DNA of 64,000 nucleotides from Acholoe squamosa (lineage: Eukaryota; Annelida; Polychaeta; Phyllodocida; Polynoidae): contig OX439038.1 in assembly GCA_949317995.1 (NCBI GenBank), positions 72,364,659-72,428,658 of the forward strand, read 5' to 3'. Below, piece after piece: positions 2,276 through 32,945 of the stretch. The notes under the pieces are model-generated. The model saw only the letters and a list, made by a program, of their open reading frames with translations. It ran no database searches and had not been told where the DNA came from. The first letter of the stretch is position 1. Each line of letters opens with the position of its first letter. A program made the translations under genes and the position numbers.

Positions 2276-2278
2276 TAA

Positions 2279-5832: not shown

Positions 5833-5839
5833 TTTATTC

Positions 5840-7532: not shown

Positions 7533-7554
7533 CACACAATAGTTATTAGCAGTA

Positions 7555-8540: not shown

Positions 8541-8595
8541 CCTGAAAAAAAAACAGAAGAATGTAGACTCAAAATATTGCCAAAAAAAAAGCCTA

Positions 8596-9610: not shown

Positions 9611-9732
9611 AGACAATAGACAACTCTTTCTTCACATCTTGACTGTCTGTTGTTCTATAATGCACTCAGATGCATTCGTGCATTATAGAACAACAGACAG
9701 TCTCGATGTGAAGAAAATCGTTGTCTATTCTC
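9611..9732. repeat. Long hairpin P1
   Basis: Arms of about 55 bp pair around a short loop. The inner arm GACTGTCTGTTGTTCTATAA pairs with its complement ending at about 9703, and the outer GACAATAGACAAC pairs with GTTGTCTATTCTC. Pairing is interrupted near the loop by TC at 9666-9667 facing TC at 9676-9677. Read on the minus strand this is CAC-GA facing GA-GTG, the mismatch shared with the other long hairpins of this window. Confidence 0.85.
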
Positions 9733-10024
9733 TAAATAGCGTTTCTTCATTTAAATATAAATGCAGGGTTCCAGTTTAGGTTTCCATTATGGCTTATAAC
9801 AGGGAGCCGTAGCACAGTGCTCAGTGCCGTAGCACAGTGCTCTGTCCCCGGCACACTTAGGCCACATTGTTTTATTTATATGGGTTACGGTTATTTATAT
9901 GGGCCATGGAAAAGTCAAAAACCCAAATAAAAGTTGAAAAATCAACTTTTTTTTATTACCTCCGACCTCCCAAAACAAAAACTTTTTACAGAAAAAGTAG
10001 GGGTAATTGGTATTAAAATGAAGC
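9733..10024. other. No feature recognised
   Basis: AT-rich sequence. A short direct repeat CCGTAGCACAGTGCTC occurs twice at about 9808-9842. No coding or structural signal beyond that. Confidence 0.4.
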
Positions 10025-10026
10025 TA

Positions 10027-10317
10027 CCGCAATCTCTCCCGTATAAGGCGCGTCTTATTCGTGAGGTTTTAGTTCTCCCTGGATCCACAAGGGGGACACC
10101 AAGATCTTTCTTTTGATATGTTACACTCCCCCTAAGTTATAATGGGACATAGGAGGGTTCGGGAGGGTCCTGGGGGCCCTAGTTATACATAGCTTTTTGA
10201 ATTTTGAAAATCCAATCAGTAGAATAAGAGTTATGAATTTTTAATTTTTTTGACTGCTTTCTAAAACTCGAGGTGCGTCTTATAGGCGGAATGCGCCTTA
10301 TATGCGAGGGATTACAG
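10027..10317. mobile_element. TA-flanked MITE, TATAAGRCGC family, copy 3 (inverted)
   Basis: The ends are CCGCAATCTCTCCCGTATAA and ATGCGAGGGATTACAG, flanked by TA at 10025-10026 and 10318-10319. The interior segment CCTGGATCCACAAGGGGGAC is the complement of the corresponding part of the element at 7555-7845, so it is the same subfamily inserted in the other direction. Confidence 0.8.
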
Positions 10318-10319
10318 TA

Positions 10320-11047
10320 CTTATACCAGGAATGCATTCAATGTACTATTATCTGAATTAATGCTTATTAAGACCATAAAAGAGTACCAAAGAATTGAAT
10401 TCCTTAAAAATTCAAATATAACCTGCACTGAACCTCTACGACCAGCTCATATGCCGCAGCTTGTGAATAGTTGAAACGCTGCAATTGTAGCTTTTATCTT
10501 ATTTATTTATTTATTTATTTCGTCCTCCGACCTGAAACTTTCATTTTGGGTGCCCGTAACCTAAGATAAGAAAAAAAGTGTGGCCTTAGCGCGGACGTCA
10601 GAGCATCACCTTTATTACAGGAATTTTTCGGCCCGATGAATGGTACTTGTTTCTGTGAGGTACACCCCCTGAAGCTGATGGCCTCTAAAGGGAGGGCAGT
10701 ACCCAGATCCATGTGTCAAGGGCACGGCCACTATACCATGGGCAGGAGTAAAACTTTAAGATGGGGACTATTAGGATACTCATCCTCTCTCAGGGGAAGT
10801 GTCAAAATAAATTACAAGTTTCACAGCTCCACTGCACCACCCCCTCACCACTATTAGTGGCGCCCGTAGTCTAGTGGATTCTGAAGCCCCTAACTTCGAG
10901 TTAAATGGTCAGAGTCTGGGTGCGTCAGTCACAGTGTCTAACTTTCTACTGTATGACTGTGAGACCACGCACATACACGTAGTGTACTTTATATCCATGG
11001 TGAGACCGAGTCGAATTCTCCCTGCAGACTGACATAATTTATTATCC
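10320..11047. other. Gene-free stretch with a small ATTT microsatellite
   Basis: About five ATTT units lie at 10500-10519. A CCCGTAGTCTAGTGGATTC word near 10864 resembles a polymerase III A box, but I find no matching B box, so no tRNA-like gene is called. No coding exon is recognised. Confidence 0.4.
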
Positions 11048-11050
11048 TAA

Positions 11051-11368
11051 GGGAGTGGTCATTATTTATCAACAGGGGGGGGAGGGTGGGTTTGAGGGAG
11101 GGGCGTACAATTTTCAGACCCCTCCCGAGGGGGGGGCTAAAAAAATTTTGACCCCTCCTGAGGGGGGGCTAAAAAAATTCACCCTCTTTTTAGCAAAAAA
11201 GCCCGTGCGCTACTATAGATCAAAGAGGGGCGCGAAAACTCTCTGCGTCTCCGGCGCGGGGGGCGCAAAAAATTTTGACTGCCGTCGAGGGGGGGGCGTA
11301 AAAAATTTCCGCGCGTCCGCGCAAAAACCCACCACCCCCCCCCCTGTTGATAAATAATGACCACTCCC
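11051..11368. mobile_element. Harbinger-like MITE, copy b (TAA target duplication)
   Basis: This is the best-preserved copy. The first 20 bases, GGGAGTGGTCATTATTTATC, are matched perfectly by the complement of the right end, and the match continues through AACAGGGGGGG. TAA lies at 11048-11050 and 11369-11371. The interior repeats GAGGGGGGGCTAAAAAAATT-like blocks and has no transposase. Confidence 0.92.
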
Positions 11369-11371
11369 TAA

Positions 11372-12123
11372 CATGATGATACCTAAAATCCGTGTCTGCA
11401 TGTGCCCGTGTTTGCTACAGAGCTACCAAGTGTTACGAATTTTTCGTAATTTTTACCATTTTTGACCCCTGTTACGACCATCACTCCAGCTATAATATGG
11501 AAAAGGGTGTATGATAATTAGTAGAAATGTCAGTACAAGAATAGTTGGAATAACCCAAAATATCCTTGGAAATGTAAGGGCAACTACCGGAAAATATGTT
11601 TAACGATATGTATTTAAATGTGTTTGTGTGCAATTAAAGTGGATTACTATGGCTACAAAATGGATTACTATCTTTGGTACAAAATATTACGAATTTTTGC
11701 CTCAGATTACGGTTTTTCACACAAAAAATTACTATTTCTGGTAAGGGCAAGTTGGTACCGCTGTTCCCCTTGAGATCCTTTTTTCAAATTAAAAGAACTA
11801 TAGCTGCTGAGACAGCAAACAATTTTGTATTGGGATGCAAGAAAGGGGGCTTTGGCACTCTTCTTGGAGCAACATTGTTATCTTACCCACATTGTGTGAC
11901 CAGTCACCAGCCTCTCTCAGTCCTCCTCCCAGATCAAAGGGATTTGCTCTGATGGCCTTTGGCATCTACATCTGTTGGGCGTCAATTGTCCAATTAGAGT
12001 CTTTTGACGCTTTGTTACATTTCTCCCTGCCAGACCTTTCCAGACACCATTTGCTGGAAGGTGACATTTCTTATATCAGTGATACTCCAAAGAATATTCT
12101 GAAATTTAATCGTTTATTTTCAG
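11372..12123. other. Sequence upstream of ZC3H3 exon 2, probably intron 1
   Basis: An open frame runs back to 11835, but its residues before 12124 do not resemble ZC3H3. A good acceptor, TTATTTTCAG, ends at 12123, exactly where similarity begins. I therefore treat this as intron. No first exon or promoter is recognised here. Confidence 0.5.
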
Positions 12124-14256: not shown

Positions 14257-17200
14257 GTAAATATGTAGAATATGTTGTTTCTTGCAAACGCACTCATTCT
14301 TCCTTAAAATCTATATACACCTATTTGATTTGATATGTGTAGACCTTTGTAGAATTTAAAAAGAAACATGTGATGTAAAAGACATTAAATTAAATGTAAT
14401 TATGTGGCATAAAGATACCACACTTCTAATGCAGTTTCAGATCTCTAATCTTCTATACATGTACTTACTTGTGAAATGCAAAATTTGATAACAATTGTTA
14501 CATGTTAAATTGCAGGAACAGACCTGAACATCAACCAGTTGCTTGGCCGTACTGTGGACAATGTCAGCTCAAACAAATACAAGTTCATCAACAGGGGAGC
14601 AGCAAGCGTTAGTCCACGGAAATACACACACCGATCACCGCGCAATGTGCAATCAAATAAGAATAGGTACATCTGATTTATTTGGTTTGAACTTTCATAG
14701 TGTTTTGTTCCGAATTTCCATTCAGTTAATACATTCGTGTCTAAAAAAAACACTGAGACTAGGGGTGTGACACCCTGTCAGAGGTGTAAGATTGTTTTGA
14801 AGTCTGCTTAGAGACGTGAAGGACGAGTAGGATACCCTGGAAAGGGGGGGGGGTAGGAATACAATAAATTATAAAAGGGAGGGGGAGCCTGGAAGAGAAA
14901 TATTTCGCTGAAGAGCTAAAACTTGTCTATCCTGCTTTGTTCTATGGGATCAAACCAAAGGATATGGATGGTATTGAAGCAAATTCATAGGGGTCGTAAA
15001 CAGTGTAATGCTTGGCTGGGAACAAGTGACTTCTGATTCTCTTTATTGGCCCACCTGGTTTTCCTCAGATTATCATTGAAAATGGCCATTAGTATTTCAT
15101 AATAATCGTCTTCTGTGTACATTAAATCAGTATGTTAACATATACCATACTTCATATGTAAGACTAAAAGTCGATCGGCGAACACCTGCTCAGCGGGCCA
15201 TTGGGGCGGCAGGCCTCCCGCCGCGGAGAAGACGGGTTGGCCGCCAACATGTCAGTATTGGAGGTGTAGTGTATAAGACGTCACAGAGGAAACTGACTCG
15301 TGCTTCCCCAAAAAGGGTCATTTCTAAAAAAGGTGAGGAAAGTAAATTTCTAGACCTGTATTAAGCGAAGGCCTATGTATCATGAAGGTCTTAGACACAC
15401 TGTAGAAATAACATACCACATAGTTATACTTATCCCATATTTTTGCTTTATTTCATACTTTTCTTTTGTTCATTACAGTTTAAAGGAGGAAAGATGTTTG
15501 ATATTTTTGAAACACTGTTTTCTGCATAATAGCATATAGATTTCATACCATGCATGTATCATTCAAACAGGTTTCCCAAAACCCCAGACGCGGAGAGTGT
15601 CAGTGGGAGGACACAGGTACCGAGTGACTCAGAACCGACTCACGCTGCTCAGGGTGAACAGTGGTAAGTTAATGTCAATTACCGTATTGGCCTGTTGAAG
15701 CCCCATAAACTCTAATAAGCACCACTCTCAAATGAATGCCTGGGGTTGTAGGAATTGAAATTTATCTAATGCACTAAAAACTCTTATCTCACATAAGTGC
15801 CAAACTCATAAAAGGCTAGCGGTACTGTTGAAATTAGATCCTTTCAAAACTATTGACTTCATCAACCTCAGATATCTCAGGTCCTCAGTTTTGGCACTGT
15901 CAGTTTTCAGTGGGAAAGTATTCAACACCCCCCCCCCCCACCAACATTTGCAGTCAACTCAAAGAGCAGGAGAGTCTAATTAAAGGGTAATTCAATTATG
16001 ACAAATACTACTGCTACTTTAGACATTCATCTTTGGGATTTTCAAAGGGCATTTTCATCAATGCAAATACCAATGGCTTTGAAACTAATTTGGACCCACC
16101 CAGAAATGTGTCTAGTGCCCGGGTCTAGTGTAACTATCATAATACCTTGCATATCAGTCACCGAATATAATGGAAACAACAGTATTAGAGCATGAGCTAC
16201 GGCACTTGTCAGTACCAATCTCGGTGAATACACCAGACTTTATTTTTTGGATTAGTATATGCCCAGGAATCTCTAATTACTTTGCTAGACATCTAAGTCA
16301 CCCAGCTAAGCTAGGATATCCTGCAAAATATACCGTAATCCTTTGTTTACCTCTGTTTCCTGTATAGCAACCCTAACATCCTTACTATTTGGAATAGTGG
16401 CATAAAATTAGAACCAAATTGAAGTCAAAACAGAACTACCGGTATTCACTTTACACTCATCCAATGATAACCACCTTGTTGGCACATTTTGTGTAATCCT
16501 TCAAATATGTCATTAACTCTAGTCAATGACATATATAAGAGTATGGTAAATGAACCCTGATTCTGCTACAATAGAACACCCGGGCAGTAACTATATTTGC
16601 AGACTGTGTGCAGTTTGGCTATCACAGGCACATTAGAATTTAGTGAAATGCTGAGTGTGTGTTTCATGTAGTCTAACAAGTTTGGCCCATGAAGAGGTAT
16701 GTAACATGAGTTGGGCATGTGCAGTGCAGTCCTGACAGGCACTTATAATCAGTGTTCACATAGTTGGCAGATAATCATTGCAACTTGTTAGAGTTAACAT
16801 GAATTTTTAAGGTTTTTTTTTCTGTATATCCCAATATTGAATCCTATTTGGTATATTAATTCTAAAACAAATATTTATTCAATTTCAATGTTAGATATGA
16901 GTTTAATGTTCTGTCACAGAAGATAGCCAACTTGGTTGATACATACTATGGGTAGGGTAACATTTTCACAGGTCATAGCTGTCATTATACAAACAAAGCA
17001 AGGTGCAAGGAGGATTAGTTCCAGCCGCTGACCATTAACCCCTTAAGGATCACCTTAACCCTTTAAGGGCCAATAGTGCAGTAATGCCTATTTGTTGTCT
17101 GTATATTAACTAAGTAATGTATGGGCTAACAGGCACCGAATGGCATGTATCGTAGGATATCGTAACAAGTGGCCGTAGGCCACGAGTTACGATATCCTAC

Positions 17201-20200
17201 GATACATGCCATGAGGTGCCTGTTAGCCCATACCTTACTAAGTTTATTACACGATTAATCAATAAAAAATCAATAAATAATCAATAAAATATCAATAAAA
17301 ACAAGTTGAAAACAAAAATCCTTCCCCGGGACGCGAAGCCTGCCATAGTACACACAGCTCAGCGCCCGGCAGCGGACAGCGACAGCCCCGGTCTCAGCTA
17401 GCCTTGGCAGCGGCACACGGCGAAAAATAGTGTATGTACACGATCGGCGCCCGGTAGCGGACAGCTACAGCGCACACGGCGAAAAAAGATTTCAATGCGT
17501 CTCGCTGTTATGTTTGTATATAATACACCTCCTCGCCCGGCAGCGGACAGCTACAGCGAACACGGCAAAAAAAGTTTTCAATGCGTCTCGCTGTTATGTT
17601 TGTGTATAATACACCTCCTCGCCTGGCAGCGGACAGCGGCAGCGCACACGGCGAAAAAAGATGCGCCCAGACCGGGACGCGATCCATGTACCTCTGACGG
17701 CTGAGCGCGACGTGCTAACCACTAGACCACCGCGTCTCCTCCTTCAGCAGCCGTGTTGGCTTGGCTATGTTTGGTTATGGTAGCGGTCAGCCCGCAGTCG
17801 TCTCCTTCCAGGGCTTTGTATATATCCAGACGTGGTTCGAAGCGAGCGTACCTCGTCAGTCCCTGTGGCGCAATGCATAGGGAGTTGGATTAGGGATCTG
17901 AGACTGCAGGTTCGAGCCGCCCTACCCTGACCATGGAAATTTCGTGGGTTTTAACATGTGACATGTGACATGGACAAGGAGTGCTGATATCCACCTCAGA
18001 GAGTGCTGATATCCACCTCAGAGAGTGCTGATATCCACCTGGGATCTGCTCATAAGGGGTCGCACAATATGCAGGAATATCAGAACTGGGATATCCAGAA
18101 AAAGCACCCAAAATCACAGAGGTTGTGTAATAAAATATAATAACTCATGCAGCAATGACATAGAACATAGACGCCAATGACAACATAGGCCAGTGGCCTA
18201 TACTTAACCTTCATGCTTTAATGCATTAATCAAAAATGTTCCAATTACATGTTGAAGGGTCAAAATTTTAAAAAGTGACAGTTTTCATGCTTTGTCACCA
18301 TCATGCAGGTACAGAGTAGAAAATACTGTTCTATTATGTTTAGTATAGCTCATGTAATTCACAATTACATGAGCTATACTGCTCTAAATTCGTGTCCAAT
18401 AGTCCAGTTTTCCTGGTTAACTTATAAAGCGAGTTTTAAGGAGACACCCTGGAGCCCTGTACTTTCAGTCATTTTGGTGGTGCGAATAAGTTTCTAAAAA
18501 GATGGAAATTTTGTATATAAGAGGCAGAATTACTTAATGAATTGGTAGTGCCATTAAAGGAGGAGATGTAGGGGTCTTGCAGGAAAAGTTATTTCATTAC
18601 AAAGTTTTGTAAATTTTGAGAAATTGTCAATATTGTACAGACTCAGTTGTTTGGCAGCCATAAGATGCTTTTGCCTCCAATGGTGAAGGTATATGATTTT
18701 GATCCATATATCAACTTTCCCGCCTTTTTTGGCAATGTGGTGCGAATAGCACAGTTTTGGCAGGAGTTATGCGAAAAGTAGCTTGGTGGTGCAAATAACC
18801 TGGGTAAGTGAGTGCTGATGCAACAGGATGAGAGCCAATCACAGGCTTTTCACTTTTCGAGTTATCAGCAATTTACATTGCTGCATTATATTTTTTGTGG
18901 ACCAGTGAGTGGCTTTAAAGACGCACCCCCAACTCAACCTAATCCGATAAGGTGCATCTGAAACCAAATTTTAGTGACTTAAGAAGTGTTCTGTAGTTTA
19001 AAAGCCAAGCATAACCTTTACTGATTGTATAGGGCGCTGTAGGGATGTAATCTGGCATGTATGAGCCATGCCATATGTGTGGGGTATTGTGGTAGGTGAT
19101 TTTAGTACGTAAAAAAAGGATAAACATATCATAGAACGATTCGACTCTTGTCTAAATCAATGATAAAGTTACAATTTTGGTGCTTTACAGATAAGGATGG
19201 AGTGAGGCGCTTGTCACTTGGTGGTGTCAAATACATCCAGACCAAACCTGGGACGTTAGTCCGAGCCACCGAGAGTACAAGTCGAACCACAGCAAGGTGA
19301 GGCACATTGAGCTAACATATTTTTAGGGAGATTTTTCTTTGGAACAATATATAAATTAGCACTGTAGTTACAAAGGAAAATCTCCCTCTTCTTTTTGGTG
19401 GAGGCTTCTCTAGATAAAACTACTGTTCCTGAGAAAAAGTGGCCTTAGTTATGCAATAAAGTGTTCAATAGACAGAGATTATAGAAAAGGCAGAGAAAAA
19501 TTGTCAGCAGCGAGCCATACCAAAAAGCGTGTGTCATGCGCAGTATTGTCGATGTTTTGAACTGTTCTCACAGCAGAGTTTATGGTAGATGGAATGGGTA
19601 AACATGCCGAAAGATGCGATGGAGAGTGTGATGTTTGTGGGCAAGATTGACCAATAAATGCAGACAAATAGAGCTTTCTCAATGTTATTCGTGATGTTGA
19701 ATTTGAATTTGAAAAAGAAAATCTTTGTGACAAATACCTTAGAATATACCTTGTATTAGAAATTATAACTATATCATTTACCACTTCAGTGGGTCATCGT
19801 TTTATGTTTCTTTTATGGCACAATATTTTATAACATCTTTCCATACTAGGACGAACTTTATCTTATGTAAAGGATCATGTAAATAAACTGTGAGGTATTA
19901 TTCAGGATTAAAACATTCACAATTACTACTGATGTGATCAATAAATCTACATATTGCAGTCGTTTCATCTACCGGAGTATTGCCACTGCAGCAGCAGCGG
20001 CAGCAGCCCGCAATAAGAAGGTGTCTGGCGTCAAGAGATACTGCATGTTCTACAACCGGTTTGGGAAGTGTAACCGTGGTGACAAGTGTCCTTATCTACA
20101 CGACCCAGATAAGGTGGCCGTCTGTACCAGGTTAGTCGTCTTTATCCCGATTGTGTAATATAGTTCTCGCCATGAATATGACCTTAGCTGTCGAAATGGC

Positions 20201-23200: not shown

Positions 23201-26200
23201 CGTACCCCCAATTTCAGTACATCCTATAAGACTGCCCAGCATTTTGTTTGGCGTAGAGGACGCGTCTTATACGCGGGAGATTACGGTACATATGTAGGGA
23301 CACAGCAAACTATAAAAGCCGAATAGAGTCTCCTCCGGTTGCCAAATCTCGGCCTCATCTCGTGGATTCACGCAGCTCTCAGTCAAGTTCCATGCAGATT
23401 TCCCTCTTTGTGGTGTTTAATTCTATGGCCACTGACAAATGCCCCTTACACTTTTCCATTCATTTCTGCATATATTTGGATAAAGGATGACTATTTCTTG
23501 AAGATATATATCAGTGAATACCTAGGTCTGAATGATCATTGATCTAGATGAGTTGAAAGTAAACATCCCAAAGAGGGGAAAATGCTGGGAACCTGACTGT
23601 GGGCAGCGTGAATTCACGAGATTTGGCCTGGGATTTGCAACCGGAGAAGACTCTATACCTGGTTAACCTGGTAACTGGTTGACTGTAACTTGTCATTTGG
23701 GCCCAAAGACGGCAGCACAGTCTGCCAAACTTAACAGTGGTGCTTAATTTGTCCACTGGATGGCAGCACCAAGCTATGCCCACTCCCCTTAGTCCTGTAC
23801 TGCTCAGTGCTTTGAGCTAGGAGAAGGTCGGTTGTCGAATGGCTATTTTTAGCATGCCTTAATTTGCTGGGTGAGGCGGGAGGCAGTTCCCACGGTTGTG
23901 ACGTCATACGTCACCAAGCTGTCAGACGGCACTCCTCTTTGTGTGTTATCAACCAGGTTATCAGGTCTGCTATAGACCACTGCAGCAAAAACACGGCGAC
24001 TCCGACCTGGCATTGCGCCATACGGCTGTGGTTAAGGAGGAATCGTTTTTCAAAATCGTTTGTGTATAAATGTAAACAAGATTGATATCATCAATATGAG
24101 GAAACTCATATGACGATTGTCTTTTGTACAGTGGATGGATATTTGCCGTTGTAGTTTGATAGGTTAACATTCCCAGCATCACAGGAAAGCGACAGGAAAG
24201 TGTAGGGGAAAAATATGAAAACTTAAAGTCACTCTTCCACACACTGTTGGTGTATATAGGCCCTAACCATGTCAGTTGTTCAGGGGTGGAAGGGCATGTT
24301 TTTATGTTCCATCGTGTATATTTTTGTTGTTTCCCTTGTTTCTTCTTTAACTGGCAAAGAAGTGTGCGTAAATCAGCCAAGTGCTGCTGTTGAGTTCACT
24401 CACTCACTCTCTCACTCAGGTAAAGAGAAGTGAGGCAATTGCCTTATCTATGGTACAGTGGGAACCCTTTATTCTTCCATGGTGTGGGTATTAAATGAAA
24501 AGAAAAGGAAATATTCTCAATTATTTCACAGTTCCATTTCATACCAGACCTAGAGAAATTCTTCTGACATCAAACTCTTTCGCTGTCTCAAAAACATGAT
24601 ACAAAAGTGAATATTCGGTACATAGAATTCGATCTGAAATGGTTTTAGAATTATTTATTTCCTAATAAGATATCTCCATAGAAATTATTGATCAATTCTT
24701 TTTAGCTACATGTATTCATCATCAAACACCTTTAGCTAATTGTTGATCATCTTAATACTGTTATTTAATACAAATCCTCATCTATAAGGTGGACCCCGAC
24801 TTCAGGCAGATTTTATAAGCGGCAGCTGAGGCTATCTCACTATGCGCCTTATACACCAAGTTTCGTATATGTAATCGTAGTACACCGTAAATTCTCAAAT
24901 AAGCCGCGGCTAGTACCAGAATCCAAATCCAAATGAGCTTTACAGTATCAGCCAAAAGAAGGGGTGCGTCTTAGAGGAGCATATTTGGCACTATAGAACA
25001 GGACTAAAACTCCAATTTTCAAGCAACAAAAGTGGCTTATACGTCCCTCTAAAATCGGGGGTGCAGCTTATACGAAAAAAAATTACGATACTAAGGATTA
25101 GAGGATATTGCGTTGATATAACATGGTCAATATTAATTGGGGCCATAAGATGGGTCATATTCAAGATATTCTGACATTCTTCTAAATGTTAAGTCAGCAT
25201 CTCTATATAAATAACTCAATATGACGAATCCATGCTTCGTCTGTCCTAATGATAACAGGAGAGGCGTGTCTGTACAGCCTTCTATATCATATAAACAGCA
25301 GCATATATGTGAAACCTACTCATTGAGATTCGTGTAAATTTCTCATAGTCTGTATGCGGTTTATACACAGGTTTTCTGATATAGAAACATTGGTAATGAA
25401 TACCATATTTTTAAGTAGCAGTATTCTGCACCAAACTGGTTTCATGACCCTGAGAGGGTTGTGTGGGCATCTTTTTGGTAAACCTACCTTTTGTATAAGG
25501 CCGAGAGAAAAAAGTAATTAGTGGCAGTTTTTTTAGTTTTAGATTGTGTTTATTGTGCATCTCCCAAAAACAGATAAGTGGTAAATGACGTACGATATAG
25601 TTGATATCTTCGTTGTCATGCAATCCATACAAAAATGAAAAGTGAAAAACGAGGAGCATAATTGTAAAAAAGGTGTTCATTATGTCAAGCGGTATCTTAA
25701 TTTGGGGATGTAGATGGGGTCAAGGACAAAAAGTAAAATTGGGAATTTCCATTATTATACCCGGCATCTAATACTTAAAAATACATTAGTGTGGGGCCAA
25801 CTGAGTTATTGACGTTAACTCAATGAAACCTTAGCACAAATTCTCTCATATAAGCCGCGGCTTATACCAGAATCCAAATCAAAATATGGCTTATAGGATC
25901 AGCCAAAAGAAGGGGTGCGGCTTATAGGAGGGGATTTGTCGCTATAGAACAGTACTACAACTACACTTTTCAAGCAAAAAGAAAAAAAAAAGTGGCTTCT
26001 AGCCACCTTTAGAGACGGGGGTGCGGCTTTTACGAGAGAATTTGCGGTAATAATGGGTAAGCATTTTTAGGTCCTGTCTGGGTGAAGAGACAGTAGGTTT
26101 TAGAAAGCTTGATAACTGTCGGGACAGGTACAGCCGGGGGGGCACTCCCTTTATTTTATGTGAATAACTTCTTCCCGTAGAGATAGCATTGCGCGGCCGA

Positions 26201-28555
26201 TCGCCACACCCCCAGTGGCGTAACGTGTGTCGATCCACCACAGCGGCCGATCCAGTACCGTAGCCTCGTTCTGGGTGCGTGTAAACATTCAAAATGGCGG
26301 ACCGCCGCTTGTACGGGGCAATACGGTAACGGATTTTGATAATTTTTCCTTATTTAAACCTCTAAAAACATAAAATAAATATAGAACTAAACTCCCCTGG
26401 TATCCTTGGTGGCCAATCCACCCCTCGGGAGTTGTCTCCCCCGAGGGCTAACGCCCTCGGGGGAGACAACTCCCTCGTGGTGGATCGACCACCTCGTACA
26501 CCACGGTCGTTTAGTTCTATCTATGTATGGCCTATAGTAACCATGTGCATACAAAAACTAAAGGGAAAGGGGTACCTTTTTGACCCTTGCGCCGGATCCG
26601 GCCGGATCCATTATAAGGGGTGTATTTTTGGCTATTTGAGGCCAAAAGGGGTATACTTTTGTGTCTGGGTAACTGACGAAAGTGTCCCTGAAATTGCAGT
26701 GAAAAGGGGTATATTTTGGGTCCTGAATGAGGGAGGTCTCACGCCAAAAAGGAGGTACATTTTCTTATCATTTTCAGAGAGCATTACACCAAAAGGGGTA
26801 TATTTTTTTGGCCCAATTTTTTTATGGCCAATTCAGAAGGGTATCATCTCAAAAGGGTTATGTTTTCTCTAAATTTTATGGGAGTATCCCGCTAAAAGGG
26901 GTATGGTTTTATTTCATGTAGTACCTCGCGTATATAAGGCGCAGCTCACGTATAAGATGCACCCTGAGCTGATGCTAGGCCAAAAGCCAAGGGGTTGATT
27001 TTCGCTCCATCTCGGTATATGTATTATGCGTTTAATGTATGTTATGGGAACGCACAAGTGGATTTACGGGTTAATAATCCACGACCCCGAAGGGGGAGTG
27101 GATTATTAACCCGTAAATCCACGAGTGCGTTCCCATAACATACATTAAGGCATTTATCTCATAGATTCCTCCATTTTGTATTAATTTCTTACCTTATAAC
27201 CCAAGAATTAATCCAGGAGAAGACATTTTGTAAGTGCATCCTATCCGCACGGTTTGCCAAGCCAGCGTAGCCATTGTTTTTACTCCACCCGTCAGACCCT
27301 CGTCTTTCCAACGAATTTTCGGGTATAATCCAAGGATGTCAAGTCCCATACTTCTAGCAGCACCAAATATACGATCTCTAGTTGGTGTTCGCCTACATTT
27401 TGTCTCCATTTTCTTCGAAATAAATAAGAATCCATTGATTTTCCATACCGATCCAACGCACACGGCCCGGTACACGGCCATTGCTTCTTGTTGACAGAGC
27501 GGGTAGGTGCCCGGATGTACCTGACCTACTTTCGGCTGAACCCACTTCCGGCAAGGAGGTCAGCCGGGTCACTCGCGTATCGCTATGGAAAATCAATGGA
27601 TTCTTATATATTTCGAAGAAAATGGAGGAATTTGGCATGGCATGTTCATATAGGATATCTAAGGAAGGTTCTCTGTTAATAACTCCACCAGGCTCCATGG
27701 ATTCTAGGCTAACGAGGTGTGTAAACTTCAGGTATGTCGGAAAAATTTTTCAAATACTGGATGTACTTTGCTATCTATCACCGGTCGGCTTGGTATAGTG
27801 GACAGCGAGCTCGCCTCCTGCCCCAGCGGCCGGGGATCGATTCCCCGTTGAACCCGAAACGGTTTTAACTGGAAATGTATGGAGGAGTTGACTTTGTATA
27901 CTTCTCCAATTTATTAACATGTCCGGAATGAAACCAGCAGCCTCTTGAAGATGTCCAAAAGGTGGTAGAGTAGGGTTATGGCTGGATAATGCACGGGGGT
28001 TATGAGCAAAAAAGCACTGTCCAAGCCAAAATCGTGAGATAATAGGTTATACGCATACCTCCGTATAAGGTTCTATGGCAAGTCACTTTTTCTCAATGAC
28101 CAAACTCAGGTTTTAAATCATATAAAGCTACCCCAGGCATTGAGGATTGATGCTCTATGTCTGCTATGCAGAGTGGAGACTCGCCATGCTAACTGACCCT
28201 ACTAAATCTATACACTCCCACAGGGTCGGCATGAGGCACTCATAGCTAGTCAGGCTATATTGAACTGCTGAAGTAGATATATTATTGAATATCAATGTAT
28301 GGGCATAGTCTTGAAAAGCTCCTTACAGAATTTCTTATGCCAAATCAAAATACTAAACTCAAACTCAGGCTGCTTGTCAGAACTGCATTGACCTACAGGC
28401 ATTATAGACTAGCACGTATCATGCGGCCCCTAAAGGTTTTAATAGTTCTTGTCCTGTTGTTAAAATAGAGTAATAAGAAAAGTTATTTTCCTTATTATTT
28501 TTCAGTTGATGAGCCGTTACAGATACGACCAAACCTGTCGTTTGACGCCAGCTAG
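12124..28555 (+). CDS. ZC3H3: Zinc finger CCCH domain-containing protein 3 (spliced gene, exons 2-11)
   Basis: Ten exons join in a consistent phase to give about 1,129 residues plus an unseen N-terminus, against about 950 in human. Order: a basic, serine-rich region with repeated K-Y-[KS]-[LV]-V motifs (exon 2), conserved tracts in exons 3-6, five CCCH fingers in exons 7-9, then a tail with RRLPSYISIRS and PLQIRPNL, both recognisable in vertebrate ZC3H3. Finger spacings are C8C5C3H, C7C4C3H, C7C4C3H, C7C5C3H and C8C5C3H. In animals ZC3H3 (Smicl) is a nuclear CPSF30-like protein linked to poly(A) tail formation, mRNA export and exosome targeting of polyadenylated nuclear RNA. The exon with the start codon is missing. 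Introns 5 and 10 are long and repeat-filled. Identity is firm; exon ends rest on splice signals and phase only. Confidence 0.95.
14516..14666 (+). CDS. ZC3H3: ZC3H3 exon 3
   Basis: The acceptor is AAATTGCAG and the donor AATAG|GTACAT. The exon encodes GTDLNINQLLGRTV and NKYKFINRGAASVSPRK, which matches the NYKW...SKSPR tract of vertebrate ZC3H3. It enters in phase 1 and leaves in phase 2. Confidence 0.9.
15163..15332 (+). CDS. ZC3H3: ZC3H3 exon 4
   Basis: The exon encodes an arginine-rich stretch followed by VSIGGVVYKTSQRKLTRAS, the counterpart of the IGGVLYKVSANKL tract in vertebrates. The donor AAAAG|GTGAGG is strong. The acceptor CATATGTAAG has a weak pyrimidine tract but is the only one giving an open frame in the required phase. 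Confidence 0.85.
15571..15663 (+). CDS. ZC3H3: ZC3H3 exon 5
   Basis: A 93-base exon between ATTCAAACAG and AGTG|GTAAGT, phase 1 on both sides, so it could be skipped without shifting the frame. It encodes RVSVGGHRYRVTQNRLTLLR, another version of the GG-x-x-Y-[KR]-V element seen in exons 4 and 6. Confidence 0.88.
17111..17240. repeat. Long hairpin P2
   Basis: Arms of about 60 bp. GTATGGGCTAACAGGCACC pairs with its complement near 17215-17233, and GGCATGTATCGTAGGATATC pairs with its complement near 17190-17210. The loop is GTA within GGCC-GTA-GGCC. Near the loop AA (17167-17168) faces GA (17184-17185) in the context ACAAGTGG and CCACGAGT, identical to the outer mismatch of the hairpin at 27032-27147. 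Confidence 0.92.
17246..17740 (-). mobile_element. tRNA-derived SINE-like element with tandem body
   Basis: On the minus strand, GGTGGTCTAGTGGTTAGCAC (A box, near 17735-17716) and GGATCGCGTCCCGG (B box, near 17674) give a tRNA-like head at about 17660-17740. Downstream on that strand come three copies of an ~85 bp unit containing CGGCAGCGGACAGC and ATGCGTCTCGCTGTTATG, then a TTATTGATT-repeat tail at about 17246-17305. The tail ends next to hairpin P2. Tail plus internal promoter is SINE architecture; transcription is inferred. Confidence 0.7.
17857..18060 (+). mobile_element. tRNA-derived SINE-like element
   Basis: The A box TGGCGCAATGCATAG (about 17865) and B box GGTTCGAGCC (17909) are spaced as in tRNA genes. 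The 3' part has three tandem copies of a ~22 bp unit, GTGCTGATATCCACCTCAGA, at about 17980-18040. Confidence 0.65.
18341..18378. repeat. Short perfect palindrome
   Basis: AGTATAGCTCATGTAATT is followed by a three-base loop (CAC or CACA) and its complement. It sits in intron 5. No mismatch of the P1-P5 type is present. Confidence 0.85.
19191..19296 (+). CDS. ZC3H3: ZC3H3 exon 6
   Basis: The acceptor is GGTGCTTTACAG and the donor GCAAG|GTGAGG. It encodes RRLSLGGVKYIQTKPGTLVR, the third GG-V-x-Y element in a row. Phase 1 in, phase 2 out. Confidence 0.9.
19297..19959 (+). other. ZC3H3: ZC3H3 intron 6
   Basis: 663 bases between GTGAGG and TATTGCAG. No repeat or RNA gene is recognised. Confidence 0.7.
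19960..20130 (+). CDS. ZC3H3: ZC3H3 exon 7 (CCCH finger 1)
   Basis: The acceptor is ACATATTGCAG and the donor ACCAG|GTTAGT. An alanine run (seven residues) is followed by the highly conserved KRYCMFYNRFGKCNRGDKC and PYLHDPDKVAVCTR. This is finger 1 (C-x8-C-x5-C-x3-H) plus the first cysteine of finger 2, which continues across the intron. Confidence 0.97.
20131..20754 (+). other. ZC3H3: ZC3H3 intron 7
   Basis: 624 bases. A segment at about 20157-20200 (ATGAATATGACCTTAGCTGT) recurs inverted at about 32340-32395, so it holds part of a dispersed repeat. Confidence 0.65.
20755..20950 (+). CDS. ZC3H3: ZC3H3 exon 8 (CCCH fingers 2-4)
   Basis: The acceptor is AATTGGCAG and the donor GATAAG|GTATTG. 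It encodes RFLRGTCKVTDCPFSH (finger 2), CTHFLRGVCSRDECPYRH (finger 3) and CQDFVNGYCPLGDK, the first two cysteines of finger 4. Finger 4 can only be completed by correct splicing to exon 9. Confidence 0.97.
21670..21741 (+). mobile_element. tRNA-Ala-like sequence, probably a SINE head
   Basis: GGGGATGTAGCTCAGTGGTA and GTCCCGGGTTCAAATCCTGG carry intact A and B boxes. The acceptor stem GGGGATG pairs with TATTTCC using three wobbles. The body resembles tRNA-Ala, but the anticodon stem (GCCGC facing TTGGA) does not pair well and the anticodon is ambiguous, so this is more likely a decayed tRNA or SINE promoter than a working tRNA gene. Confidence 0.65.
21882..22134. mobile_element. Harbinger-like MITE, copy c, abutting the exon 9 acceptor
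   Basis: The ends are GGGAGTGGTCATTTTTAACA and its near-complement, flanked by TTA at 21879-21881 and 22135-22137. Only ACAG separates the right duplication from exon 9. The C-rich right half (about 22078-22108) gives a pyrimidine-rich stretch upstream of the acceptor. Confidence 0.9.
22142..22287 (+). CDS. ZC3H3: ZC3H3 exon 9 (end of finger 4, finger 5)
   Basis: The acceptor is CCTTAACAG and the donor CCAAG|GTACTA. It encodes CKKKH, completing finger 4, then CPKHDGKGTCPDGTKCKLFH (finger 5, C-x8-C-x5-C-x3-H), then a basic tail. It enters in phase 0 from exon 8, and the reconstituted spacing C-x7-C-x5-C-x3-H confirms the join. Confidence 0.95.
22559..22731 (+). CDS. ZC3H3: ZC3H3 exon 10
   Basis: The acceptor is CAAACCTCAG and the donor TTCAG|GTAACT. 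After an acidic stretch (VDVDDRH) comes RRLPSYISIRSEES, the counterpart of the conserved KLPSFISL motif near the end of vertebrate ZC3H3. Phase 2 in, phase 1 out. Confidence 0.92.
22861..23050. mobile_element. MITE of the GTAAATTCTC family
   Basis: GTAAATTCTCGCATATAAGC on the left is matched by the complement of the right end (GCAAGAATTTACG). The interior repeats ATAAGCC or ATAAGCTGCACCC-like words. The next MITE starts three bases further on. Confidence 0.65.
23054..23286. mobile_element. TA-flanked MITE, TATAAGRCGC family, copy 4
   Basis: Flanked by TA at 23052-23053 and 23287-23288, with ends CCGTAATCTCCCGCATAGAA and the complement of CCGTAATCTCCCGCGTATAA. It is nearly identical over most of its length to the copy at 8596-8828. 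Confidence 0.87.
23322..23658. mobile_element. Fold-back element with ~100 bp arms
   Basis: TAGAGTCTCCTCCGGTTGC at the left end pairs with the complement of GCAACCGGAGAAGACTCTA at the right. The similarity runs inward about 100 bp on each side, including TCTCGTGGATTCACGC against its complement. The spacer is about 130 bp. Confidence 0.75.
24883..25088. mobile_element. MITE of the GTAAATTCTC family
   Basis: Left end CACCGTAAATTCTCAAATAA, right end ATACGAAAAAAAATTACGAT, with TA on both sides. The interior shares TACCAGAATCCAAATC and AGCCAAAAGAAGGGGTGCG with the copy at 25834-26047. A fragment of a related element lies just upstream at about 24783-24880. Confidence 0.7.
25834..26047. mobile_element. 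MITE of the GTAAATTCTC family
   Basis: Left end GCACAAATTCTCTCATATAA and right end TTTACGAGAGAATTTGCGG are inverted repeats, flanked by TA. Interior words ATAAGCCGCGGCTTATACCA and GGGGTGCGGCTT are shared with the element at 24883-25088. Confidence 0.72.
26379..26525. repeat. Long hairpin P3
   Basis: TAGAACTAAAC at the left pairs with GTTTAGTTCTA at the right. The inner arm GGGAGTTGTCTCCCCCGAGG pairs perfectly around the loop TAAC. Near 26425 and 26475, TC faces TC; on the minus strand this is CAC-GA-GGG opposite CCC-GA-G, the tandem G-A mismatch shared by P1-P5. The outer half is less regular. Confidence 0.85.
26564..26911 (+). repeat. Spaced motif array, eight AAAAGGGGTATATTTT-like words
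   Basis: The motif occurs near 26564, 26612, 26643, 26700, 26745, 26789, 26850 and 26893, all in one orientation. Spacers of 15-45 bp share little sequence with one another. The open frame that reads KGVYF repeatedly across it is a by-product. It is not CRISPR: the repeat is degenerate and the host is an animal. Confidence 0.7.
27032..27147. repeat. Long hairpin P4
   Basis: Arms of about 56 bp pair around the loop GAA: TTAATGTATGTTATGGGAAC with its complement, and GTGGATTTACGGGTTAATAA with its complement. The only mismatches are two purine pairs. AA (27056-27057) faces GA (27123-27124) in CACAAGTGG and CCACGAGTG, and GA (27083-27084) faces GA (27096-27097) in CCACGACCCC and GGGGGAGTGG. The right side is followed by GGCATTTATCTCATAGATT, similar to the flanks of P5 and, weakly, P2. 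Confidence 0.93.
27405..27640. repeat. Inverted repeat with ~50 bp arms
   Basis: CTCCATTTTCTTCGAAATAA and AAGAATCCATTGATTTTCCA on the left are matched by the complement at about 27581-27640. The spacer is about 130 bp. The arms could form part of a fold-back element; its ends are not resolved. Confidence 0.75.
27784..27860 (+). mobile_element. tRNA-like sequence, probable SINE head or tRNA relic
   Basis: TGGTATAGTGGACAGCG resembles an A box, and GGGGATCGATTCCCC is a clear T-arm with B box. The anticodon and acceptor stems do not fold convincingly, so I do not call an isoacceptor. Confidence 0.5.
28506..28555 (+). CDS. ZC3H3: ZC3H3 exon 11 (last coding exon)
   Basis: The acceptor is ATTATTTTTCAG. 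It encodes VDEPLQIRPNLSFDAS and a TAG stop at 28553-28555. PLQIRPNL matches the terminal PLHIKPRL of vertebrate ZC3H3, so the gene end is secure despite the 5.8 kb intron before it. Phase 1 in. Confidence 0.93.
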
Positions 28556-29348: not shown

Positions 29349-29459
29349 AACCTGCATATAAGGCGCACCCCCAACTCAAGGCAGCCTTGCTCCCGCGTAT
29401 AAGACCCATGAACGATCTGATTTGTGTATAAGACGCGCCTTATATGCGGGAGATTACGG
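29349..29459. mobile_element. TATAAGRCGC-family MITE, truncated copy 5
   Basis: The right end, ATGCGGGAGATTACGG followed by TA, is intact. The left end is missing; the interior word GCATATAAGGCGCACCCCCA marks where it starts. Confidence 0.7.
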
Positions 29460-29699
29460 TAGTGTGGGCAAACTCAAGTCATCACTGATATGTTGGAGTC
29501 TTTTCATCAACACTGCATTGGTGCATCAATATGACCCTTCAGAAATCTATCAAACACAAAGGGTTATCAACATGCACCAGGGCACTATGCCGCCCTCAAA
29601 GGGTCAACTTATGACATAGGCAGCCTCCCCCAATGGTGCCATTATACAGACGGGTATGGTAAATATTTCCATTTACAGTGTTTGTACTAAATCAGAATG

Positions 29700-29701
<2 letters not shown>

Positions 29702-29776
<75 letters not shown>
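29702..29776. repeat. (AT)n microsatellite, about 37 units
   Basis: An uninterrupted alternating AT tract of about 75 bp. Such tracts readily extrude as cruciforms and are length-variable. Confidence 0.97.
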
Positions 29777-29780
<4 letters not shown>

Positions 29781-30374: not shown

Positions 30375-30377
30375 TAA

Positions 30378-30632
30378 GGCCTAAAAAATAGTTGTGTTCA
30401 GGTAACGGGGTCGAAAAAAATAAGGGTAGGTAGGTTAATAGTAGGAAAATTAGTTTTGGGGGCCGGCTGTAAATTTTCGCAAATTTTATGTGCGAGATTG
30501 TAAAAAAAAAAATCCAAGTCTCGATAAGTGCTAAAATATCAGATTTTCCCAAAAATGCCATAAAAAAGTTAGGGTAGGGCCAGAAAATTAGGGTAGGTAG
30601 CGTTACCTGAAAACAACACTTTTTTTTAGGCC
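30378..30632. mobile_element. Harbinger-like MITE, GGCCTAAAA family
   Basis: Left end GGCCTAAAAAATAGTTGTGT, matched by the complement of CAACACTTTTTTTTAGGCC at the right, with the similarity running through CAGGTAACG. TAA lies at 30375-30377 and 30633-30635. The interior repeats TTAGGGTAGG words. The element at 56403-56806 has a similar end. Confidence 0.88.
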
Positions 30633-30854
30633 TAAGGACATGAGCGACCCTTAGTACAGTGTTGACAGGCGGAATATGACATGGTCTTTAAGTTTATACG
30701 GAGGAAGCATTTGATACGCAATTTATATCTAGATACATCAAGTTTAAAAACAAAATGGTGCCCCTTCAAAATGTTGAACAGTAATTATTTTATACTGATA
30801 TTGTTCCATTTTATTATCGTTGACCTCTGTATGTGTTATGTATGTGATTGTTTC

Positions 30855-30860
30855 AATAAA
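30855..30860 (+). promoter_or_regulatory. Candidate polyadenylation signal AATAAA
   Basis: AATAAA in TTTCAATAAAGAATAATAAA. It could serve ZC3H3 only with a 3' untranslated region of about 2.3 kb. Chance occurrence is equally likely. Confidence 0.25.
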
Positions 30861-31954
30861 GAATAATAAAAACATTAAGAATTGTGATCGTCTTCTATAT
30901 TATCTAAGAGGATGACCCCATAGTGATATCTTCACCTATTAGGTTCACTCCAAACTTAATCTTATAGGCGCACTAGTAATCCAGCCTCAAGTCTAGGCGG
31001 CACCTTATGTGCGCTATATAGCGTTATATCAAGTTAATGCTTTTCCTATTGGGCATGCCTTATTCGCTCTAATGAGCACACAAGTGCGAAAAATAAATTC
31101 ATAGATGCTTAACAATAATAATTTCTTACAAGCGCACCCCATCCACCTTTTTGATTTATATGTTCTTTGCATTTGGGCTGAAAATACTTCCAAGAAAACC
31201 TTTCAGGTTCATGGTTTAAAAAAAAAGATGTTCATAAGGTGATCAATAACACTGCTGTGTGATTACCCCCGGTGATAACCTTCACCTGTAACAAAAGGGC
31301 TCTCAGAGCATCTAAAATTATCATTAAAACGCGATAACTTCACTTTTTCCAGATAATTTACAGGCCTTTGAGGTATTCTTACAGTAATGAAATGAATAGA
31401 AGGGATTCCAGAATATGAGACATGGTCAGCATCGAGGGCTGTCTTGCTCACATGGTCAGCATCGAGGGCTGTCTTGCTCAGTATCGCCGCATTGATAACC
31501 CTCGTATATTTGCGATTGTGGCGCACCTCTTTCTATATTAGGGACGAGTCAAGTGCCTTAATAGGTGGGGGGTTTGGTTGATTTAAGGGGGGGGGGGGTT
31601 TGTAAAAGAAAAAAAAAGGCTGGGGGGGGGGGGCAAAACTCCATAAACCTACATGCTGGGAAGGGGGGGGGGGGTAAAAACTAAATAGAATGTTTCTAGT
31701 ACATGTACTCATCATTCCGCATACATGTATGTTTATGCATTTTTTATCGTAGGGGGGGTTACAAAATCATTTCTCAGTATTCTCTTCCCCCGCTAACATT
31801 CTATCAAGTCCCACCAGCTGGCAATAAATATCTAGTGGCCAGTCAAAAATGTCTATCCATGAAGAGATTGTGCGCTCATTGTAGTAAATGTAATATATGT
31901 ACATGACATACTTCAACTTAACTCATTAAATGAAAGGCATTCACATCAAATCTA
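30861..31954. other. Gene-free; small tandem duplication and G-tract region
   Basis: A 29 bp segment, ACATGGTCAGCATCGAGGGC plus following bases, is duplicated in tandem at about 31421-31479. G tracts of 7-13 occur at about 31565-31675, four or more in 110 bp, so the plus strand could form a G-quadruplex. No coding exon is seen. Confidence 0.6.
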
Positions 31955-32027
31955 GCTTAAAATTCTAAACTCTCATCTCTGTACCGCGGTACATAGATGA
32001 GAGTTTAGAATTTTAAGCTAATCAAAT
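31955..32027. repeat. Palindrome
   Basis: TAGCTTAAAATTCTAAACTC pairs with its complement around a centre GTACCGCGGTAC. It is nearly perfect over about 34 bp per arm. The tandem G-A mismatch of P1-P5 is not present. Confidence 0.88.
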
Positions 32028-32841
32028 CAGACTACTAACAAGGCGTCGTGATTGATTTTGATGCAAGTTTTGATGACCGGAAATCTGGATTGTACTTGAG
32101 GTGTCCCTAAAGGTGCTGACTAAACAAACACGTTTCACTCCCACCAGGTATTACTCTCAACTTGATGAACACTTTAAGGGTCACAGAATATATTGAAATG
32201 CGTTTATACCATTAAATTTTGACTCCACGATACATGATTGTATTACTAGAGATAATGCTAGTCCACCAAGGCTGCATTCATTAGGACCGATCCTATCGTA
32301 ACGTCCTGAGTATTTGAGTGAGTGAGTGACTAATAGATGATTAATGCCATTTCGACAGCTAAGGTCATATTCATGACGAGAATGACATTACTTAATTTCA
32401 CAGGGGAATGTGTTGGTGCCCGCGCATATGTGCACCATGCAAATCTGTGGGGATAGGAGAGAGATGATATAGGCCTAGACCCTTTGAAGTGTTATAGGGA
32501 AGCCCTCCTGAAGGTTTGACAGGATGCACTAATGTATTGGAGGCATCATGCAGTTCTTAAAGGTTATATTAAGTACTTGTACCAGGCTGATAGGGGACCG
32601 TTTAGTAGGTTAAGCTGAAACACCTAAATATTCATGCACCTATCGTCGGTCTTGGGTCATTGAGGGAAATGCTATATAAGGAACATGTGCATGAGACTTG
32701 ATTTTCAGCATTCGAATACCGGAAAACATATGATGTAACATAGTGTTATTTCAGCTCACCTAATGTTATAAGCCACCCCCTGACCTCAGATACGTTAGCT
32801 GGCGACCTGCTGCAACTCCCAGGATACTCACACGATATATA
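32028..32841. other. Gene-free stretch with a dispersed repeat fragment
   Basis: About 32340-32395 is the inverted counterpart of 20157-20200. Otherwise unassigned. Confidence 0.4.
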
Positions 32842-32945
32842 GGCAAATGTTCACGAGGGGGGAGAATTTTTTAGGGTTATCTCACGCACCGATCAGGCAA
32901 GTGAGATAACCCTAAAAATTTCTCCCCATGAGTGTTCATTTGCAT
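32842..32945. repeat. Long hairpin P5
   Basis: GCAAATG pairs with CATTTGC at the outside, and AGGGTTATCTCAC pairs with GTGAGATAACCCT inside. GA (32855-32856) faces GA (32930-32931) in CACGAGGGG and CCCCATGAGTG, the shared mismatch. Near the loop CACGC faces CAAGTG. The flank GCATTTATTTCATG resembles that of P4. Confidence 0.82.

What the first reader, a model, noticed from the sequence alone, without database searches (positions are those of the whole stretch)
9611..32945. Five long hairpins of different sequence share one fixed CAC-GA / RA-GTG mismatch
Hairpins at 9611-9732, 17111-17240, 26379-26525, 27032-27147 and 32842-32945 have arms of 45-65 bp that are mostly unrelated in sequence. Each is interrupted at CAC-GA on one arm facing RA-GTG on the other (P1 and P3 read on the minus strand), giving tandem G-A or A-A/A-G mismatches; P3 has an extra imperfect pair beside it. 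The 27032 hairpin has the motif twice. P4 and P5 share a 3' flank GCATTTATYTCAT, and P2 and P4 share an outer TAATGTATG. Neutral decay would not put the same mismatch in the same context each time, so the mismatch looks kept or created by a mechanism. Possibilities: a hairpin mobile element with a nuclease-recognised internal loop and template-switched arms, or a structured RNA.
Basis: partly seen in the sequence, partly recalled or inferred. Interest (0 to 1): 0.9.

Follow-up and report, generated by a model that had tools for sequence, protein, structure and literature searches.

The report
Jumping DNA with giant jointed hairpins
The five hairpins are the ends of small, very numerous mobile DNA elements, probably in an animal genome; the hairpin sequences differ freely, but one kind of mismatched joint is mostly kept, which suggests that the moving machinery reads the shape of a folded single DNA strand.

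Summary
Read on one strand per hairpin (P1-, P2+, P3-, P4+, P5+), 10 of 11 tandem interior loops are GA/GA or GA/AA with an outer C-G pair, and 5 of 5 apical loops are C-G...A-G. Control hairpins: 2 of 19 loops (sorted by hand).

The 1.48 Gb genome shows what they are. Each hairpin lies at one end of a dispersed repeat; P1, P2 and P3 have 1,685-4,149 first-look candidates, 40 scored each. P1, P3 and P5 have an inverted repeat just inside the hairpin and again at the far end; P2 probably too; P4's far end was not found. One nested copy shows insertion without target duplication. This is the plan of non-autonomous Helitron2/Helentron elements, with hairpins of 102-153 nt instead of short palindromes. 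In the P5 family stem pairs change on both sides while most joints persist; three copies lost joints by arm-to-arm copying.

Best reading: rolling-circle-type elements whose end is recognised as strand-specific folded ssDNA, with GA joints as the kept feature. Not shown: the partner transposase, the folded strand in vivo, the function of the joints. New variant of a known kind.

The parts
9430..9736 (-). P1 element, complete (~305-307 bp, ends within 1 base); hairpin end at 9736, far end at 9430
   Evidence: 30 genomic loci: unrelated sequence begins at the hairpin on one side; on the other, homology to L070 ends 179-190 nt inside in 26 of 29
9611..9732 (-). P1 terminal hairpin; joints GA/AA at 9639-9640 with 9703-9704 and GAT/GA further out; apical loop GAATGCATCTGA
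9602..9611 (.). inner copy of the P1 inverted repeat (GTTTTATAAA on +)
   Evidence: sequence
9430..9439 (.). far copy of the P1 inverted repeat (TTTATAAAAC on +), at the far end
17104..18134 (+). P2 element; hairpin end sharp at about 17104; far end only inferred from a 10-bp inverted repeat
   Evidence: 40 scored copies start at query 1-8; repeat match, which could be chance; far end not compared with other copies
17108..17244 (+). P2 terminal hairpin; joints GA/GA (17138-17139 with 17213-17214) and AA/GA (17167-17168 with 17184-17185); apical loop C-GTA-G
17243..17252 (.). inner copy of the P2 inverted repeat (TTTATTACAC)
18125..18134 (.). putative far copy of the P2 inverted repeat (GTGTAATAAA)
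26150..26528 (-). P3 element, complete (379 bp); hairpin end at 26528
   Evidence: 39 of 39 other scored copies (94-97%) span query 42-47 to 412-428; second copy in L082 has the same ends
26381..26520 (-). P3 terminal hairpin; three GA/RA joints, G.T wobbles, apical loop C-GTTA-G
26368..26379 (.). inner copy of the P3 inverted repeat (ACATAAAATAAA on +)
26150..26161 (.). far copy of the P3 inverted repeat (TTTATTTTATGT on +)
26202..26241 (.). P3 far-end palindrome (GCCAC-ACCCCCA-GTGGC region) and the 13-mer GTCGATCCACCAC shared with the hairpin arm
   Evidence: sequence
27017..27757 (+). P4 element, lower bound; relative L029 matches 27017 to 27757 (87.6%), where the held locus ends
   Evidence: far end not found; a genome search for P4 did not complete
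27032..27148 (+). P4 terminal hairpin; joints AA/GA (27056-27057 with 27123-27124) and GA/GA (27083-27084 with 27096-27097); apical loop C-GAA-G
32842..33176 (+). P5 element; a shortened member (hairpin 102 nt against 153 nt in full copies)
   Evidence: a genome search for P5 itself did not complete
32842..32943 (+). P5 terminal hairpin; joints TT/TT and GA/GA, then a 15-nt apical loop starting G and ending A
32945..32957 (.). inner copy of the P5 inverted repeat (TTTATTTCATGTT)
33164..33176 (.). far copy of the P5 inverted repeat (AACATGAAATAAA)
33089..33118 (.). P5 far-end palindrome (GGGTTATCGCAC ... GTGCGATACGG), words similar to those of family hairpins
   Evidence: sequence

Best explanation
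The five hairpins are the termini of five families of small non-autonomous mobile elements with the plan of Helitron2/Helentron-type (rolling-circle, HUH Rep) transposons: an inverted repeat beginning TTTAT at the far end, a palindrome near it, a second inverted copy of the repeat, and then a terminal hairpin. The hairpin has grown to 102-153 nt. On one strand it folds into a single-stranded DNA rod of stems joined by tandem GA/GA or GA/AA pairs and capped by C-G...A-G loops. Stem sequence is free to change as long as both arms change together; joints are mostly kept. The likely mechanism (inferred) is that a transposase supplied in trans recognises the folded strand by joints and cap, which also tell one strand from the other, to cut or to end transfer at this terminus. 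Shown: repeat families (P1, P2, P3 by genome search, P5 by sampled copies, P4 by one relative), sharp ends, inverted repeats, no target duplication in one site, covariation and persistence of joints in the P5 family. Inferred: rolling-circle movement, the partner enzyme, the folded strand, the role of the joints.
For: Repeat families with sharp ends at the hairpin: P1 (2,296 first-look candidates, 40 scored, 94-100%), P2 (1,685; 40 scored, at least 97%), P3 (4,149; 39 of 39 other scored copies share both ends). Inverted repeats of 10-13 bp in P1, P3 and P5, confirmed by other copies, and a 10-bp match in P2. Of 16 P5-type copies with the full 153-nt hairpin (14 distinct), 15 have the far repeat, up to 2 errors, 229-245 nt after the foot. 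One empty site: L071 lies in another P1-family hairpin, GCATTAT^AGAACAA, without duplication. Covariation in 13 P5-type hairpins: 97.7% of 871 cells paired, 16 pairs changed on both sides, 58 such cells against 19.2 (sd 3.1) shuffled, 0/500. In 14 distinct hairpins the GA.AG joints stay in 12-13 of 14 and a T.G wobble in 13. In 29 P1 copies the joint bases stay in 27-29, and changed pairs are G.T in 39 cells, A.C in 9. Literature passages: Helentron/HINE plan (PMC4067079); fungal Helitron2 terminal hairpins with GAA loops (PMC5148889); Helraiser hairpin works with a swapped stem (~90%) but not with a changed loop (PMC4778049). The genome holds 87 Helitron_like_N matches, 31 in open frames of 2,054-3,071 codons.
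Against: The hairpin is flush with the terminus and the inner repeat lies at least the length of the hairpin (102-153 nt) from it, against 38-60 bp reported for Helentrons. P4's far end was not found. Other joints are kept too in the P5 family (TT in 9-12 of 14, GC/AA in 10-11 of 14), so GA/RA is not the only one. In P1 the first cap base is A instead of G in 8 of 29 copies. One covariation measure, further pair types, is no higher than in shuffles (34 against 33.1, 206/500), and the rows form a few subfamilies. In the usual Helitron orientation the strand with the hairpin at its 3' end carries the TC side, so the GA fold would be on the other strand. Scored copies are very alike, so copies are not independent cases; at most the five families are.
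Confidence: 0.67

Rival explanations
1. The mismatches are repair-blind remnants. Arms are kept alike by hairpin-mediated correction (mismatch repair or template switching), and only tandem sheared GA pairs, which repair sees poorly, survive; no function is needed.
For: Arms are otherwise near perfect in P1, P2 and P4; arm-to-arm recopying does occur (L039, L048, L029). That repair sees such pairs poorly is recalled.
Against: In those three copies the recopying erased GA joints, so joints are not immune. Other joints (TT/TT, GC/AA) persist too, and apical loops follow the same rule although nothing pairs there. GA/GA needs two changes at one place.
Confidence: 0.15
2. The hairpins encode a structured RNA or small-RNA precursor, and the GA pairs are RNA tertiary motifs.
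For: Tandem GA pairs and G-U wobbles are also stable in RNA (recalled); covariation alone cannot tell RNA from ssDNA.
Against: No Rfam match at gathering threshold. The hairpin sits at the sharp end of a mobile element; the three-base loops GTA, GAA and GCA are typical of DNA mini-hairpins rather than RNA tetraloops (recalled).
Confidence: 0.07
3. Miniature inverted-repeat (MITE) derivatives of a cut-and-paste transposon that carry a long palindrome at one end.
For: Short, high copy, with inverted repeats.
Against: The inverted repeats are not at both termini: a 102-153 nt hairpin lies outside one of them. The one empty site has no target duplication. The terminal palindrome is present in all five families.
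Confidence: 0.1

Closest known systems
Helentron-derived HINE/DINE-1 elements and Helitron2
   Same: asymmetric inverted repeats, the one near the 3' end followed by a palindrome; palindromes at both ends; short non-autonomous copies in high number (PMC4067079, PMC5148889: passages read); no target duplication in the one site tested here
   Different: terminal palindrome of 102-153 nt instead of 5-10 bp; flush with the terminus; several stems with tandem GA joints; AT-rich target with a TTAT-like word 7-10 nt upstream (26 P1 loci) rather than a plain TT
Helraiser 3' hairpin (Helitron1)
   Same: hairpin near one end; stem sequence exchangeable, loop not (PMC4778049 passages)
   Different: 19-bp palindrome 11 nt from a CTAG end, no inverted repeats, A^T target
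Bacterial REP sequences and TnpA_REP (IS200/IS605-like)
   Same: strand-specific folded ssDNA hairpin; in one group a kept tandem mismatch in the stem is needed for activity (PMC8266576 passages)
   Different: E. coli REPs are 29-37 nt with an AA-GC mismatch and a GTAG motif; here GA/RA joints, much longer stems, and no Y1 transposase looked for or identified
Streptomyces telomeres and parvovirus terminal hairpins
   Same: single-strand hairpins closed by G:A sheared pairs (PMC4513846 passages); a mismatched GA/GAA site in a viral terminal hairpin (PMC1185569 passages)
   Different: these are replication ends of linear replicons; here ends of dispersed repeats inside chromosomes

Membership tests
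Helitron2/Helentron (non-autonomous) | asymmetric inverted repeats: one at the 5' end, its partner inside the 3' terminal palindrome | tested here: met
   P1, P3, P5 confirmed by other copies; P2 a 10-bp match only; not found for P4
[quoted passage not shown]
   all five, but far longer than reported
Helitron2/Helentron (non-autonomous) | palindrome near the other end (Helitron2) | tested here: met
   P3 and P5 far-end palindromes and, by reading of the loci, P1; P2 and P4 not examined beyond a word search
Helitron2/Helentron (non-autonomous) | no target-site duplication | tested here: met
   one nested empty site, L071; a single case
Helitron2/Helentron (non-autonomous) | insertion in TT or T-rich sites | tested here: inconclusive
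   26 P1 loci: A or T before one end in 24, AT-rich after the other
Helitron2/Helentron (non-autonomous) | shares ends with an autonomous element encoding Rep (HUH) and helicase | tested here: inconclusive
   Rep-type genes are in the genome (87 matches), but no element with both genes and these ends was seen; whole elements could not be fetched
Cut-and-paste MITE | terminal inverted repeats at both outermost ends with constant target duplication | tested here: not met
   hairpin lies outside one repeat; no duplication in the one empty site
REP / TnpA_REP | GTAG motif beside a short palindrome | tested here: not met
   no GTAG at the hairpin feet printed; hairpins 102-153 nt
Known structured RNA | match to an Rfam family | tested here: not met
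   only a tRNA in the window at gathering threshold

The most novel reading that the evidence does not exclude
A lineage of rolling-circle-type animal transposons marks its terminus by a modular single-stranded DNA rod: interchangeable stems of about 11-30 bp joined by tandem GA joints and capped by G...A loops. The enzyme reads joints and cap, not the stem letters, and the purine joints on only one strand tell it which strand to process.
Probability: 0.42. Interest if true: 0.8.

Novelty: new variant of a known kind. Interest (0 to 1): 0.66.

Why it matters
How Helitron2/Helentron transposases recognise their ends is, to my knowledge, untested. Here many natural variants show which parts of a terminal hairpin change (stem sequence) and which mostly stay (joints), and on which strand. 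That turns the question into a direct binding and cleavage test with oligonucleotides, and gives a structural signature (tandem GA joints, G...A caps, one strand) for finding such ends in other genomes. My paper searches listed no paper that by title or abstract start describes GA-jointed terminal hairpins in eukaryotic transposons; passages of seven papers were read and most subscription papers are not held.

Tried and rejected
Parvovirus-like telomeres: only an analogy; the P1, P3 and P5 elements have short interiors that end after about 180-245 nt, too short for genes. Arms copied from nearby unique DNA: the one 13-bp match (P3) lies inside the P3 element. P3 and P4 as two ends of one element: rejected, each is the end of its own repeat. 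Co-evolution of hairpin words with far-end words: tested in 16 full P5-type copies and only partial: the variable base of the first word agrees in 8, differs in 6 and could not be read in 2. Protein homology of the 832-codon frame gave one weak partial relative and no species name. Looking for the hairpin ends in the 30 held Helitron_like_N pieces found nothing. (48 of 70 places) contains spurious folds and was used only for the 16 copies of full 153-nt span (14 distinct). Rows dropped: L010, the most divergent, was left out of the 13-row alignment but is; one of 30 P1 loci without a recognisable left end is missing (29), four loci without both ends (26). In one search nine hairpins that lie at P1- or P5-type places (L010, L014, L017, L021, L023, L025, L087, L094, L095) were filed as non-family by my word list; I set them aside by hand, which leaves 19 control loops (L005 and L006 show the same one).
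Full report
What was claimed and what is there. The five hairpins are at the stated places. On the motif strand (P1 and P3 minus; P2, P4 and P5 plus) 10 of 11 tandem interior loops are GA/GA or GA/AA, each with a C-G outer pair; the exception is TT/TT in P5. The count includes P1's asymmetric outer loop (GAT/GA) and leaves out single mismatches and a 3x3 loop in P5. The caps are CAC-GAATGCATCTGA-GTG, C-GTA-G, C-GTTA-G, C-GAA-G, and in P5 a 15-nt loop beginning G and ending A. With random mismatched dinucleotides the chance of 10 of 11 is about 2e-11 and of 5 of 5 caps about 2e-9, both post hoc.

Controls. None of six other 2x2 loops in the window scan is GA/RA (an AT array was cut from its output). 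A scan without energies over the window and 128 loci gave 19 loops in hairpins outside these families, after nine misfiled family members were set aside by hand; 2 are of the GA/AA type, both in the hairpin at 23323-23656 and on opposite strands. That is near the 0.069 expected. Energy-based folds show such loops more readily: the control hairpins 23323 and 40604 also have GA/AA-type loops. So an isolated GA/AA loop is no sign of anything; the run of them on one strand is.

What the hairpins belong to. The window looks like animal nuclear DNA (an inference: LINE fragments, sparse coding); the species was not identified. The assembly has 1.48 Gb. The 13-mer shared by P4 and P5, GCATTTATYTCAT, occurs 1,004 and 1,012 times on the two strands, against 45 and 15 for the reversed pattern. 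The P1 hairpin has 2,296 first-look candidates; 40 were scored, at 94-100% identity. Among 30 of these loci unrelated sequence begins at the hairpin on one side; on the other, homology to L070 ends 179-190 nt inside in 26 of 29 and earlier in 3. P3 behaves alike: 39 of 39 other scored copies begin and end within a few bases of 26528 and 26150, and a second copy, found by chance in L082, has the same ends at 84% identity. P2 has 1,685 candidates, 40 scored at 97% or more, starting at about 17104. P4 is known through one relative, L029, and P5 through the copies behind the 13-mer; genome searches for P4 and P5 themselves did not complete.

Plan of the elements. Just inside the hairpin lies a 10-13 bp sequence beginning TTTAT whose reverse complement lies at the far end: TTTATAAAAC (P1), TTTATTTTATGT (P3), TTTATTTCATGTT (P5), and probably TTTATTACAC (P2, unconfirmed). 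Of 16 full P5-type copies, 15 have the far repeat 229-245 nt after the hairpin foot. One P1 element (L071) is inserted in another P1-family hairpin; uninterrupted relatives read GCATTATAGAACAA, and the insertion fits between T and A with no duplication. In 26 P1 loci one end is TTCTCTAA followed by A/T/G, T (22 of 26), A (22 of 26); the other end is preceded by A or T in 24 and by a TTAT-like word 7-10 nt upstream (16-21 of 26 per base). Inverted repeat, second copy inside, then a terminal hairpin, without target duplication, is the plan described for Helentron-derived HINEs and Helitron2 (passages of PMC4067079 and PMC5148889), where palindromes are 5-10 bp; here 102-153 nt.

Evidence that structure is kept. 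Of 70 places with the 13-mer in L001-L068, 16 carry the full 153-nt hairpin, 14 of them distinct. In 13 (the most divergent left out) 97.7% of 871 cells pair, 16 of 67 pairs have changes on both sides and 58 cells carry such changes, against 19.2 (sd 3.1) in shuffles, 0 of 500; sliding the partners destroys it; the number of further pair types is no higher than shuffled (206 of 500). The rows form a few subfamilies, so independent changes are fewer than cells. In all 14 the two GA.AG joints stay in 12-13, the TT joint in 9-12, the GC/AA joint in 10-11, and a T.G wobble in 13. L039 and L048 show a stretch of one arm that has become the exact complement of the other, with loss of a GA joint; L029, a P4 relative, shows the same at its apex. 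Recopying can thus remove joints, yet the amplified lineages sampled keep them. In 29 P1 copies the joint bases stay in 27-29, but the first cap base is A instead of G in 8; changed pairs are G.T in 39 cells and A.C in 9 on the motif strand, or 17 and 9 positions, the 17 including one pair that is G.T in the reference. The second P3 copy keeps three GA/RA joints, one changing from GA/AA to GA/GA, while stems differ.

Links inside the element. Words of the hairpin arms recur in the far-end palindrome of P5-type copies, and P3 shares a 13-mer with its own far end. They follow each other only in part: of 16 P5-type copies the variable base of the first word agrees in 8 (4 with G, 4 with T), differs in 6 and could not be read in 2; the window's P5 differs as well. 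P2 has no shared word of 8 or more.

Mechanism. The simplest account is that a transposase supplied in trans recognises the terminus as folded single-stranded DNA. Helraiser keeps about 90% activity when the hairpin stem is swapped but not when the loop is changed (PMC4778049 passages). TnpA_REP of E. coli needs a tandem mismatch in a strand-specific ssDNA hairpin (PMC8266576 passages). Streptomyces telomere hairpins are closed by G:A sheared pairs that resist single-strand nucleases (PMC4513846 passages). Two fungal Helitron2 termini have hairpins with GAA loops (PMC5148889 passages), as P4 has. That Py-GA-Pu pairs and GNA loops are unusually stable in DNA is recalled. Which strand folds in the cell is open: the GA strand has the hairpin at its 5' end, whereas in the usual Helitron description the hairpin is at the 3' end of the moving strand. 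The genome holds 87 Helitron_like_N matches, 31 in open frames of more than 2,000 codons, but none was shown to carry these ends, and the held pieces, about 3.5 kb each around the domain, share no sequence with the elements.

Verdict. Real, ordinary in kind (non-autonomous rolling-circle-like elements), unusual in form (giant hairpins with kept GA joints), and useful, because natural variation separates what may change from what mostly does not.

Noticed in passing
window 44389-46627: A 0.97-kb inverted duplication, 95.6% identical, with about 315 bp between the arms.
   Followed up: no
window 5112-7533: Tandem arrays of 64/68-bp units flanking a 38-bp array of about 33 copies.
   Followed up: no
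window 7553-7601, 8594-8642, 10024-10321, 23052-23100, 29425-29463: Dispersed repeat ends with CGTATAAGGCGC-like sequence, partly in inverted pairs about 240-300 bp apart; another small element family.
   Followed up: no
window 17257-18040: The putative interior of the P2 element holds tandem repeats (11-bp, 86-bp and 22-bp units), as HINEs often do.
   Followed up: partly
window 27404-27627: A 49-bp near-perfect inverted repeat with 126 nt between, inside the P4 element and shared with L029.
   Followed up: partly
window 23323-23656: Inverted repeat with 100-nt arms (79%) and GA/AA-type loops on both strands; not one of the five families as far as seen.
   Followed up: partly
window 11835-14333: 832-codon open frame with no Pfam match and one partial relative (45% identity over 20% of the query); perhaps an exon of a basic serine-rich protein.
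   Followed up: partly
window 3461-4542: Reverse transcriptase fragment (RVT_1 at 3461-4180) and an overlapping frame that reads on, probably a decayed LINE.
   Followed up: no
L028 and L050: Adjacent or nested hairpin elements; L028's other hairpin (GTCCAC-GA with GA-GTGGAC) appears to belong to a further family.
   Followed up: partly
L099-L128: Many intact-looking Helitron_like_N frames in several families, some in pairs with equal scores, suggesting recent activity.
   Followed up: no
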